Of a DNA stretch of 64,000 nt, positions 54,531 to 59,184 are shown piece by piece. A program made the translations under genes and the position numbers. Origin of the DNA: an uncultured Lachnospiraceae bacterium (lineage in GTDB: Bacteria; Bacillota; Clostridia; Lachnospirales; Lachnospiraceae); NCBI GenBank assembly GCA_947630595.1, contig CANRIG010000002.1, positions 1-64,000 of the forward strand, written 5' to 3'. How positions within the stretch are numbered: position 1 is the stretch's first letter; each line of letters starts with the position of its first letter. The notes under the pieces are model-generated. The model was not told the DNA's origin. It saw nothing but the letters and a program-made list of their open reading frames with translations, and searched no databases.

Positions 54531-57500
54531 TCACTTCTTCTGCACCAGTTTTATATTTTCTTTTCCAAAAAGCCCCGTGAGCTGTTCCAGTACCGGCCCG
54601 TCGGCTTTCACTGTCCAGTTTTCTCCCAGCCGGCGCACCGCCCGCTCGCTGCGCACATAGATCGCCACATGATCTTTGCCCTTCGAGTGGCGGAGCACGT
54701 CGAAGAGCTGCTGCTCCTTTTCCTGATACTCCCGCTTGTCCGCAAACTGCACCCACAGCTCCTGCGGCGTCTCCTCAAACGGCCAGATGCGCTCGCAGAT
54801 GAGCTTGCTCGGCTTGTCGTCCTCACAGTTCACGCGCCCGCGCACAAAAACCTTGCGGTCGTAGGTCAGCAGCGCGCTGTTTTTTTCATAATCGCGCGGG
54901 AACACGACCACTTCCGCCGTGCCCACCAGGTCTTCAATCGTCAGGAAGGCCATCGTCTTGTTGGTCTTGGTGTATTTGATGGTCCGGCCCGTAATCATGC
55001 CGCCGATGATGGCGGTGCTGTTGTCCTTCACGCGCGATACCCCGGTCTCCTCGTCCAGCGCAAAATCCGCGGTCACGTTTGTGATGACGCGTCTCCACAT
55101 CTCCTCGTAGCGCTCGAGCGGATGGCCGCTGATGTAAATGCCGAGCACCTCTTTCTCAAACGCGAGAATCTGATCCTTGTCGTACTCCCCGACGTCCGGC
55201 ATCTGCACCTCGTACTCCCGCTTCTCTTCCTCGTCCATCAGATCAAAAAGAGACATTTGCCCGCTGACGGCGCTCTTTTTCTCCTGCACCACGCGCTCGA
55301 TAATCCCGCCGTATACCTGCATCAGCTGCCTGCGGGTGCCGCCCAGGCCGTCCATGGCGCCGGACTTGATCAGGCTCTCGATGGTGCGCTTGTTGACCTC
55401 CTTGCCGGCCACGCGCTCGATGAAATTGCCGATGCTCCCGTACGGGCCGTGCTGCTCCCTCTCCCGGACGATGGCGTCGATCACCGGCCGGCCGATGCTC
55501 TTAATGGCCGACATGCCGTAGCGAATGTTGTTCCCATCCACCGAAAAGCCGCCCTCTCCGAGGTTGATGTCCGGCGGCAGGATGCCGATCCCCATCTGAC
55601 GGCAGGTCAGCGTGTACTCCGCGACTTTGTTGGGGTTGTCGATCACGGAGGTCATCAGCGCCGCCATGAACTCGACCGGATAATAATATTTCAGGTACGC
55701 CGTCTGATAAGCCACCACCGCGTAGGCCGCCGCGTGCGACTTGTTGAACGCGTACTTTGCGAAATCCGTCATCTCGTCAAAAATTTTGTTGGCCGTGCGC
55801 TCGTCGATGCCGTTGGCCGCGCAACCGGGCACGCCCTCCTCCGGGTTTCCGTAGACAAAATTCTGACGCTCGCGCGCCATCACCGCCGCCTTTTTCTTGG
55901 ACATCGCGCGCCGCACCAGGTCGCTGCGCCCGAGCGTGTAGCCGCCCAGGTCGCGCACGATCTGCATGACCTGCTCCTGATAAACGATACAGCCGTAGGT
56001 CGCCTCCAGAATCGGTTTCAGCTGCGGACAATCATATGTGATCTCCTCCGGGTGCGCCTTGCCCCGGATATACTGAGGAATAAACTCCATCGGCCCCGGC
56101 CGGTAAAGCGAAATGCCGGCGATGATATCCTCCAGGCTCTGCGGGCGCAGCTCCTTCATGAAGTTTTTCATCCCCGCGCTCTCCAGCTGGAACACGCCCT
56201 CCGTCTTGCCGGTGCCGATCGAATCCAGTACCTTCTTGTCGTTGTAATCGATTTCTTCTATTATAATAGTCTTTCCGCTGCTCTTTTCCGCCATCCGCAC
56301 CGCGTTCTGAATCACGGTCAGCGTCCGCAGGCCCAGAAAATCCATCTTCAGCAGGCCCAGCTCCTCCAGCGTTGTCATCGTAAACTGCGTGGTGATGGTG
56401 CCGTCCGCCGCCCGCGACAGCGGCACATATTCGTCCACAGCCTTCTGGCTGATCACCACGCCGGCAGCGTGCATGGACGTATGGCGCGGCAGGCCCTCCA
56501 GCCGTTTCGACATATCGATCAGCTCATGCACCTGCTCGTCGTTTTCGTACATCGTGCGCAGCTCCTGGCTCATCTGCAGCGCCTTGTCGATGGTAATGTT
56601 CAGTTCCTGCGGCACCATCTTGGCGATCGTGTCGCACAGCGCGTACGGCATGTCCATCACGCGGCCCACATCGCGGATCACGCCGCGCGCCGCCAGCGTA
56701 CCGAAAGTGACGATCTGCACCACGCGGTCCTTGCCGTACTTGCGCACCACATAGTCGATGACCTCCTGCCGCCGCTCGAAGCAGAAATCAATGTCGATAT
56801 CCGGCATCGACACGCGCTCCGGATTCAGGAAACGCTCAAACAACAGGTTGTAGCGGATCGGGTCAAGCTGCGTGATACCCAGCGTGTAAGACACCAGGCT
56901 GCCGGCCGCCGAGCCGCGCCCCGGGCCCACGCTGATGCCGTTTTCGCGCGCGTAACGGATGAAGTCCCAGACAATCAGGAAATAATCGACGTAGCCCATC
57001 TTCTGAATCACCGAGAGCTCGTACTCCAGCCGCGGCCTGTGCGTCTCCGCCTGCGCCCCGTACAGCCGCTCCAGCCCCTCAGAGCAGAGCTTGTTCAGGT
57101 ATTCCCAGGAGGTATAGGGCGCGGGGACGTCAAATTTCGGCAGCTTGGTCACGCCGAATTCGATCTCGACATGGCAGCGCTGCGCAATCCGGTGCGTATT
57201 TTCCAGCGCCTGCGGCGCGTACGGAAACAGCTCCGCCATCTGCTCCGGCGATTTCACGTAATACTGGCCGCCCTCATAGCGCATCCGGTCCTCATCCGCC
57301 AGCTTTTTGCCGGTCTGGATGCAGAGCAGGATGTCGTGAGCCGCCACGTCGTCCTCGTAAGTGTAATGCACGTCGTTGGTCGCCACCAGGCCGATGCCCA
57401 GCTCGCGGCTCATGCGCAGCAGCTGCTGGTTGACCATCTTCTGATCGGCAATCCCGTGATCCTGCAGCTCCAGGAAATAATTGTCCGCACCGAAAATATC

Positions 57501-57989
57501 GCGGTACCGCTGCGCCGCCTCCTTCGCCTCCTCGTACATGCCGCGCACCAGATAGCGCGGAATCTCCCCGGCCAGGCAGGCGCTGAGCGCAATGATGCCG
57601 CTGTGGTATTCGCGCAGCAGCTCCAGGTCGACCCTGGGGCGGTAATAGAAGCCTTCCACAAAGCCTCTGGAAACGATCTTCATGAGGTTGGCGTAGCCCT
57701 CGTTGTTCTCGGCCAGCAAAACGAGGTGGTAATAGCGGTCCTCGTCGCTGCCCAGCTCGCGGTCAAACCGCGAATTCGGCGCCACGTACACCTCGCACCC
57801 GAGGACGGGATTGATCCCGGCTGCCTTTGCCTCGCGGTAAAAATCGATGACGCCGTACATCACTCCGTGATCGGTGATCGCCGCGCTGTCCATGCCCAGC
57901 TCTTTGACCCGGGCCACATATTCTTTTATTTTATTGGAGCCGTCCAGCAGGCTGTACTCCGTGTGGACGTGCAGGTGTGTAAAATTCAC
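54531..57989 (-). CDS. dnaE: DNA polymerase III subunit alpha
   Basis: [19 protein letters not shown] (PHP), [49 protein letters not shown]; likely GTG start at 57989. Confidence 0.97.
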   Translation of the reverse strand: [1152 protein letters not shown]

Positions 57990-58169
57990 GGCTTTCTCCT
58001 CTTTGCTTTCCCGGTTTCGTCTCAATTCTACCATCTTTGCCGCGAGGCCGCAAGACGAAAGCGAAAGGTCTTTGTGTGTTTATAATTCTTTCCAGTGTTT
58101 CAAGATAAGGATTGCCTTGCCCATATATATTCTTGCGTTTTTCTCTGTTATCTGCCTAATATTCATCCA

Positions 58170-58546
58170 TCATATTTTTCTCAGGCATTTATCGAACAAA
58201 GCCTCCATCTTTTCATATCTGCACAAAAAGGAATCCTTACTGGCAGACAGCATTTCATATGCATCCAAATTGCTGAAATCAACTGCATAATGATTGTAAA
58301 GCGCCAGTTCCCTGATAAATTCCCGTTGAGTTCTCCTGCCCAAATATAAAGATCCTGAAAGATATAAAAGTGAATATCACACAGGTGCTTAAGATCAAAT
58401 CTTCCGAAAACCGGTTTATGAATCAGATCATTGATTCGTATAGCGGTAAGCTTTCGTTCAACTTCCTGCAATTTCTTCTGATCGTTAATACCAAGTTTAT
58501 TTCTCAGGACTTCTGAATCCGGATAACAATACATCATATCATTCAT
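58170..58546 (-). pseudogene. Fic-domain protein, internally deleted and frameshifted
   Basis: N-part MNDMMYCYPDSEVLRNKLGINDQKKLQEVERKLTAIRINDLIHKPVFGRFDLKHLCDIHFYIFQDLYIWAG; shifted frame GRTQREFIRELALYNHYAVDFSNLDAYEMLSASKDSFLCRYEKMEALFDKCLRKI; HxFxxGN core missing. Confidence 0.85.
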
Positions 58547-58547
58547 A

Positions 58548-58907
58548 TTACAAATCCTCTGCCGGTTCATCGGGTCCGGTGCCATTGGCGGAAGCAATAA
58601 TCATCCTTCTAAGCTCGTCTCCGCTTACTTTTTTATTATTGTAATCGGTCAGCATCTGAATTTCCTCATCTGTAAGATTCATGCCTTCCATTGCCAAAGT
58701 CGCGCGAGTCTCCCGAATGCCCTGCTCCATTGTATAAGCCGGATGATTCAGCTTCACCTCAAACGGTATGCTTTCCGTGATTATGATCTGCTTCAGCAAC
58801 ATATTAACAACGGCAGACAAATTTGTTCCAAGGGATTCCAGAATCGCGGCAGCTTTTTCCCGGTCTGCAGGATCGGTTCTCACCTGCAGCAAAGATGTAT
58901 TTGCCAT
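58548..58907 (-). CDS. RelB/DinJ-family antitoxin-like protein
   Basis: MANTSLLQVRTDPADREKAAAILESLGTNLSAVVNMLLKQIIITESIPFEVKLN. Confidence 0.88.
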   Translation of the reverse strand: MANTSLLQVRTDPADREKAAAILESLGTNLSAVVNMLLKQIIITESIPFEVKLNHPAYTMEQGIRETRATLAMEGMNLTDEEIQMLTDYNNKKVSGDELRRMIIASANGTGPDEPAEDL

Positions 58908-58937
58908 AAAGAATGCCTCCTTTGTATCTTTTGCATT

Positions 58938-58966
58938 ATTATAGCACATTGTCAGTACAATGTAAA
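58938..58966 (-). promoter_or_regulatory. Sigma-70-type promoter of the relB-fic locus with embedded palindrome
   Basis: Minus strand TTTACA-17 bp-TATAAT; ACATTGT-actg-ACAATGT inverted repeat at 58946-58963. Confidence 0.75.
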
Positions 58967-59043
58967 TTTATTTTATTTTATTCCATAAAGCACAGTGCTT
59001 TCTTCGTAACGCAGGCGGCTCTGATCAAAAACCCATAAAATCC

Positions 59044-59184
59044 ATGAAAAGCAAAAGCCGTCTTCTCAAAATCGGTCAATGGCGATATAATTTATTTGAC
59101 CAATCGGAGCAGATGGAACAGGATTTCACCCGGCTGATGGCATTCTGGAAAAGCATTTACCTGAGAAAAGAGGAAACCCCATGA
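59044..59184 (+). CDS. Small ORF (46 aa) overlapping the ABC ATPase start (ATGA)
   Basis: MKSKSRLLKIGQWRYNLFDQSEQMEQDFTRLMAFWKSIYLRKEETP*; stop overlaps ATG at 59181. Confidence 0.35.
   Translation: MKSKSRLLKIGQWRYNLFDQSEQMEQDFTRLMAFWKSIYLRKEETP

What the first reader, a model, noticed from the sequence alone, without database searches (positions are those of the whole stretch)
58170..58966. relB-fic toxin-antitoxin locus with catalytic core of Fic excised but regulation intact
Minus strand reads ...HFYIFQDLYIWAG and then GAGAACTCAACGGGAATTTATCAGG, which in the next frame is GRTQREFIRELALYNHY..., the segment that normally follows HPFREGN in Fic domains. The HxFxxGN part is missing and the frame shifts at the join (GGAGAAC resembles the GGAAGAAC expected in NGRT, suggesting microhomology). 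The antitoxin ORF, a TTTACA-17-TATAAT promoter and an ACATTGT-n4-ACAATGT operator-like palindrome remain. This suggests toxin inactivation with retention of an orphan antitoxin.
Basis: partly seen in the sequence, partly recalled or inferred. Interest (0 to 1): 0.6.

Follow-up and report, generated by a model that had tools for sequence, protein, structure and literature searches.

The report
Decayed Fic toxin beside intact antitoxin
A small foreign toxin-antitoxin cassette in this bacterium has lost the catalytic heart of its Fic toxin through a 199-base deletion, while the antitoxin gene and its promoter and operator remain; this is a known kind of decay, but almost every relative of this cassette that we found has broken its toxin too, each in a different way.

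Summary
On the minus strand, a 119-aa RelB/DinJ-type antitoxin (58907-58548) with its own promoter and a perfect two-box operator is followed by a Fic gene. That gene matches VbhT positions 10-76 in one frame and 142-194 in the next. Against both intact relatives exactly 199 bp are missing, including HPFREGN. The antitoxin is a hybrid: a RelB/DinJ ribbon-helix-helix plus a C-terminal VbhA-type segment with the Fic-inhibitory motif (TLAMEG).

Toxin inactivation is supported. A selected, functional orphan antitoxin is not shown: the Fic fragments have diverged no faster than an intact copy and carry no further stop, so the break is young and the antitoxin has had little time to decay.

A census of the bacterial family found 13 loci of this hybrid type; Fic is full length in only two. 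Of 11 clean cases 9 are broken, by different lesions. Comparison loci: other Fic 4/24 broken (p=0.0004), DinJ with RelE/YafQ/PIN toxins 15/39 broken (p=0.016). Best reading: a horizontally acquired addiction cassette in which the toxin dies first. Ordinary as a single locus; the repeated pattern is the interesting part.

The parts
58551..58907 (-). Antitoxin gene (119 aa, stop 58550-58548): N-terminal RelB/DinJ ribbon-helix-helix (about 58752-58907) plus C-terminal VbhA-type segment (about 58587-58730)
   Evidence: TIGR02384 52.7 bits, over cut-off; PF04221 37.5 bits, over cut-off, and PF18495 sub-threshold at E 0.038; 7 of 8 family members match PF18495, best 3.8e-6
58683..58700 (-). Codons for TLAMEG, the [S/T]xxxE[G/N] Fic-inhibitory motif
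   Evidence: A69, T70, E74 and G75 invariant in the 8 aligned antitoxins
58331..58546 (-). Fic toxin, N-terminal piece (72 codons, start to WAGE)
   Evidence: NF045983 VbhT model positions 10-76, E 2.5e-15; 58% identical to intact Fic of G331
58323..58342 (-). Deletion join: 199 bp missing relative to both intact relatives, frame changed
   Evidence: WAG-to-QREF distance 14 bp against 213 bp in G331 and G450
58170..58334 (-). Fic toxin, C-terminal piece in another frame (RTQREF...CLRKI, stop 58172-58170)
   Evidence: NF045983 model positions 142-194, E 5e-6; tblastn 58% identity, different frame
58181..58546 (-). Residual ORF: 72 Fic residues plus 49 out-of-frame residues, presumably a dead product
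   Evidence: translation
58938..58966 (-). Promoter TTTACA-17-TATAAT
   Evidence: 11 of 12 consensus bases; same layout upstream of related antitoxins
58946..58963 (.). Operator-like pair of near-palindromic boxes ACATTGT-ACTG-ACAATGT, 11-bp period, inside the promoter
   Evidence: 0 mismatches, 0.02 expected with up to one mismatch; summed mismatches over 11 related promoters 16, against a shuffle minimum of 45 in 300
58916..58923 (-). Ribosome-binding site AAAGGAGG
   Evidence: sequence
58000..59170 (.). Low-GC island holding the module (39-43% G+C against about 60% in the flanks)
   Evidence: composition; no match upstream of dnaE in the 29 other same-genus loci examined

Best explanation
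This is a horizontally acquired class-I Fic toxin-antitoxin module: a VbhT-like AMP-transferase toxin with a hybrid RelB/DinJ-VbhA antitoxin that both autoregulates the operon and blocks the Fic active site in trans. It was recently disarmed by a 199-bp deletion, probably between very short matching sequences. The antitoxin is probably still made and still represses its own promoter; the toxin cannot act. Loss of the toxin before the antitoxin is the expected order of decay, because loss of the antitoxin first would be lethal. The antitoxin most likely persists because too little time has passed for it to decay. Shown: gene structure, deletion, conserved operator, young age, repeated independent toxin breaks in relatives. 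Inferred: transfer, expression, repression, inhibition, AMPylation by the intact ancestor.
For: VbhT matches to both halves. Intact relatives have PDB VbhT as best match, 2e-40. The inhibitory motif is invariant. The exact 199-bp gap. Operator conserved. Low-GC island, absent at this site in same-genus genomes. Nine of 11 clean hybrid loci broken by different lesions with the antitoxin ORF open. Fic remains dN/dS 0.07-0.16 and antitoxin 0.06-0.10 in same-genus relatives, and no acceleration in the window's Fic pieces. Other DinJ-family loci also show toxin breaks, 15/39.
Against: The excess of broken toxins over other Fic and DinJ loci (p 0.0004 and 0.016) is more than a uniform decay rate would give, so something about this module makes its toxin unusually dispensable or costly. 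The window antitoxin alone is below the Pfam VbhA cut-off. The AlphaFold model of the antitoxin was too poor to use (pLDDT 57).
Confidence: 0.8

Rival explanations
1. Selected orphan antitoxin (anti-addiction). The host keeps the antitoxin because it neutralises VbhT-type Fic toxins arriving on plasmids, and the resident toxin was selected away.
For: VbhT-type Fic relatives cover at least 80% of the query in 1,105 plasmid records. Nine of 11 hybrid loci keep the antitoxin and lose the toxin. Motif and operator are conserved. Two antitoxins (G030, G323) retain only the VbhA-type half in an open frame. The principle is known for ccd (PMC2654758).
Against: The breaks are young, so conservation after toxin loss is not demonstrated. 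The plasmid Fic genes inspected have short upstream antitoxin-like genes (two of three annotated VbhA) without RHH and are at most 50% identical, so cross-neutralisation is uncertain. No hybrid module was found on plasmids or viral contigs.
Confidence: 0.13
2. Assembly or binning artefact: the real genome has an intact Fic and the deletion was made by the assembler or picked from a minor strain.
For: The genome is a 151-contig draft; reads were not available.
Against: The join has at most about 7 bp of matching sequence, far below assembly word lengths. The missing core is nowhere else in the assembly. Relatives in separate assemblies are broken as well, at other positions.
Confidence: 0.05
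3. The orphan antitoxin was recruited as a repressor of other genes, and the RHH domain is what is kept.
For: A RelB/DinJ domain and a perfect operator are intact.
Against: The only match to the operator pattern in the window is its own promoter. In G030 and G323 it is the RHH half that is missing.
Confidence: 0.02

Closest known systems
VbhT-VbhA of Bartonella (class I Fic toxin-antitoxin; PDB 3SHG, 3ZCB)
   Same: Fic pieces align to the VbhT model over positions 10-76 and 142-194. Intact relatives match VbhT at 2e-40. The antitoxin C-terminus carries the [S/T]xxxE[G/N] motif and matches PF18495 in 7 of 8 members.
   Different: Antitoxin is about twice as long because an N-terminal RelB/DinJ DNA-binding domain is fused on. 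The toxin lacks its catalytic core.
Fic/RelB pair TA752/3 of Mycoplasma mycoides subsp. capri (PMC8562856)
   Same: A RelB/DinJ-type antitoxin gene paired with a Fic toxin gene; that paper reports toxic activity of the Fic T752 in B. subtilis.
   Different: That antitoxin is 90 aa; whether it has the inhibitory motif was not examined here. The toxin there is intact.
Decaying chromosomal TA loci such as ccdO157 and hok-sok in E. coli (cited in PMC2654758 and PMC7167474)
   Same: Loss of toxin function by insertions, point mutations or deletions.
   Different: Different toxin family. Here the species representatives are nearly all broken, each by its own lesion.
Orphan antitoxins in E. coli (PMC10790755)
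   Same: Antitoxin without partner; abundant in that survey.
   Different: Here the dead toxin is still visible, so the route to the orphan state can be read.

Membership tests
Class I Fic toxin-antitoxin module (VbhTA type) | Toxin with Fic domain related to VbhT | tested here: met
   Both pieces match NF045983 (E 2.5e-15 and 5e-6) at separate model regions, below the full-length cut-off because they are fragments
Class I Fic toxin-antitoxin module (VbhTA type) | Catalytic motif HxFx[D/E]GNGR | tested here: not met
   Deleted in the window; present in intact relatives G331 and G450. It is a remnant of such a module, not a working one
Class I Fic toxin-antitoxin module (VbhTA type) | Inhibitory helix motif [S/T]xxxE[G/N] supplied by a separate upstream antitoxin | tested here: met
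   TLAMEG at residues 70-75; invariant positions in 8 antitoxins; PF18495 in 7 of 8 members, but the window protein alone is sub-threshold
RelB/DinJ antitoxin family | RelB/DinJ ribbon-helix-helix domain | tested here: met
   TIGR02384 52.7 bits against a 45.65 cut-off; PF04221 37.5 against 22.4; PDB DinJ matches
RelB/DinJ antitoxin family | Paired with a RelE/YafQ-type toxin | tested here: not met
   The partner is a Fic gene
Autoregulated type II TA operon | Palindromic operator overlapping the promoter | tested here: met
   binding itself not tested
Functional orphan antitoxin (anti-addiction) | Neutralises a related toxin in trans | not testable with these tools
   Needs a co-expression assay
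Functional orphan antitoxin (anti-addiction) | Purifying selection on the antitoxin after toxin loss | tested here: inconclusive
   G036/G040: dN/dS 0.09 but only about 2 amino-acid changes and unknown timing of toxin loss; window against G331 saturated

The most novel reading that the evidence does not exclude
The hybrid RelB-VbhA/Fic cassette is repeatedly converted, by independent disarming of the toxin, into a stand-alone shield against incoming plasmid-borne VbhT-type Fic toxins; the broken loci would be selected immunity devices rather than dying addiction modules.
Probability: 0.12. Interest if true: 0.55.

Novelty: new member of a known kind. Interest (0 to 1): 0.3.

Why it matters
As one locus it is ordinary TA decay. 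As a set it is a natural experiment: the same toxin gene broken differently in many species while the antitoxin ORF and, where the upstream sequence is held, usually a recognisable operator remain. Whether orphan antitoxins are mere leftovers or selected immunity is an open question, and this set (two intact pairs, about ten disarmed ones, a conserved operator, an identified inhibitory motif) would allow a direct test by cross-neutralisation and by population sequence data.

Tried and rejected
1) Plasmid DNA search with the module: no match. Antitoxin on plasmids: none. On phages and viral contigs: only the RHH half of other RelB proteins. 2) Scan of genome contigs with the Fic N-terminus: only two loci, one distant with in-frame stops (L012). 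3) A class-wide antitoxin search of 391 genomes found no further locus, so the hybrid type looks confined to this family in the held sample. 5) dN/dS of the window pair against G331 and G450: synonymous sites saturated. 6) AlphaFold of the antitoxin: pLDDT 57, not used for a fold search; its helices (13-26, 30-44, 60-73, 80-90, 96-107) fit RHH plus a three-helix VbhA-like part but prove nothing. 8) Considered and rejected: programmed frameshift, because 199 bp including the catalytic loop are absent. 9) Exact microhomology: not decidable without the parent sequence.

Full report
What is there. On the minus strand between dnaE (54531-58034 as listed) and a divergent ABC transporter gene (59181) lies a low-GC patch (39-43% against about 60% on either side). 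It holds an antitoxin ORF (58907-58548, 119 aa), preceded by AAAGGAGG, a TTTACA-17-TATAAT promoter and two ACAWTGT boxes 11 bp apart (58946-58963; perfect, 0.02 expected in the window with one mismatch allowed). One base after its stop a Fic reading frame starts (58546). After 72 codons, ending WAGE, the reading continues in another frame as RTQREFIRELALYNHY... to a stop at 58172-58170.

The pieces are real. NCBIfam's VbhT model matches the first piece over positions 10-76 (E 2.5e-15) and the second over 142-194 (E 5e-6). In two intact relatives (G331, G450) the distance from TGGGCAGG to the QREF codons is 213 bp; in the window it is 14 bp, so 199 bp are missing, including the HPFREGN loop. 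The genome's four other Fic domains are complete and of other subfamilies. The nearest of them, on contig C131, has its own small upstream ORF, so the window antitoxin has no evident partner left.

The antitoxin is a hybrid. Its first half is RelB/DinJ (TIGR02384 and PF04221 over their cut-offs). Its second half carries TLAMEG, which fits the [S/T]xxxE[G/N] inhibitory motif of Fic antitoxins (established knowledge of class I Fic proteins; see PMC3667792). In an alignment of eight relatives A69, T70, E74 and G75 are invariant and seven of the eight match Pfam VbhA (best 3.8e-6), although the window protein alone is below that cut-off. Intact partner toxins match VbhT in the PDB at 2e-40. A RelB/Fic pairing has been reported in Mycoplasma mycoides (PMC8562856), so the pairing is not new; I found no description of the RelB-VbhA hybrid in the papers searched, which is weak evidence of novelty.

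The wider pattern. Antitoxin searches of the genus (47 genomes), of 397 genomes of the family and of 391 of the class, plus reading the loci, gave 13 hybrid loci. Fic is full length in G331 and G450 only. Broken: the window; G036 (deletion of about residues 145-163 with frameshift); G040 (deletion from the start to about residue 161); G026 (a 99-bp repeated palindromic element inserted near codon 15); G014 (stop at codon 6 and a frameshift near 173); G378 (in-frame loss of about 60-123); G157 (loss of about 120-160 with frameshift); G192 (cut after about 45 residues); G238 (cut after about 20). G223 (cut after about 88 but near a contig end) and G030 (Fic cut after WAG, and the antitoxin itself has lost its RHH domain by a 108-bp in-frame deletion between two copies of AGYGTGAAA) were left out of the count. 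G036 and G040 are close (98% antitoxin identity), yet their deletions differ and G040 keeps Fic sequence that G036 has lost and vice versa, so neither can derive from the other.

Comparison groups. Other Fic clades found in the same family search: 20 full length, 4 broken, contig-edge cases excluded. DinJ-family loci with RelE, YafQ or PIN toxins: 24 with a full-length toxin, 15 without, two set aside (classified by reading ORFs, not by an automated test). Hybrid loci: 2 intact, 9 broken. Fisher tests: p 0.0004 against other Fic, 0.016 against DinJ partners. Caveats: hybrid loci were found through the antitoxin and other Fic through the Fic N-terminus; restricted to the latter route the numbers are 3 of 4 broken against 4 of 24, p 0.038. 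The loci are related by descent, and groups were defined after seeing the data. Since the search required a recognisable antitoxin, it cannot say how often the antitoxin is lost first.

Age of the break. The window's Fic pieces are no more diverged from intact G450 (dN 0.333 and 0.337) than intact G331 is (0.331 and 0.428), and carry no second stop. In the genus, antitoxins (dN/dS 0.06-0.10) and broken Fic genes (0.07-0.16) show similar constraint. So the toxins were under selection until recently. This cuts against the idea that the antitoxin has demonstrably been kept for its own sake: it has not yet had time to decay. The operator is shared by the family: summed mismatches over 11 promoters are 16, the best of 300 shuffles 45, and 11 bp is by far the best spacing; G014 and G450 fit poorly. 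G040 lacks upstream sequence and G030 was left out, so both are untested.

Mechanism. Most likely a class-I Fic addiction cassette arrived by transfer (foreign composition; no match upstream of dnaE in the 29 other same-genus loci examined). While it was intact, the antitoxin repressed the operon through the two boxes and inserted its motif helix into the Fic active site (inferred). A short-homology deletion removed the active site; the frameshift ended the protein. The antitoxin now has nothing to hold in this genome. Toxin-first loss is the safe order. Plasmid VbhT-type Fic genes are common (1,105 records with at least 80% coverage), so a shield role is conceivable, but those inspected have a short upstream antitoxin-like gene without RHH, and no hybrid module was found on plasmids or viruses.

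Verdict. The finding is real and correctly read as toxin inactivation; it belongs to a known kind, decayed toxin-antitoxin loci. The added value is the repeated independent disarming of this module, which would make the leftover-or-shield question testable.

Noticed in passing
G026:C304:6268-6366 (in L099): The Fic gene of a same-genus relative is interrupted by a 99-bp element with two hairpins. It is repeated in many copies (29 matches in G026) and present in 31 of 47 genomes of the genus, but not in the window's genome; it looks like a REP- or MITE-type element.
   Followed up: partly
L110 (G030:C126) and L111 (G323:C12): Two relatives keep only the VbhA-type half of the antitoxin in an open frame. 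In G030 the RHH domain was removed by an in-frame 108-bp deletion between short direct repeats.
   Followed up: partly
L052, L056, L059, L062, L065, L079, L082, L091, L095, L097: Many DinJ-family antitoxins of this bacterial family are followed by fragments of RelE, YafQ or PIN toxins, e.g. L062 where only both ends of a RelE-like toxin remain. Toxin breakage seems common in these genomes.
   Followed up: partly
L112 (G324:C16): The first 94 residues of a Fic protein run in frame into an unrelated sequence in one 358-aa ORF.
   Followed up: no
window 58075-58170, minus strand: Between the Fic remnant and dnaE the reading ...NREKRKNIYGQGNPYLETLERIINTQRPF looks like the tail of another lost gene; not identified.
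   Followed up: no
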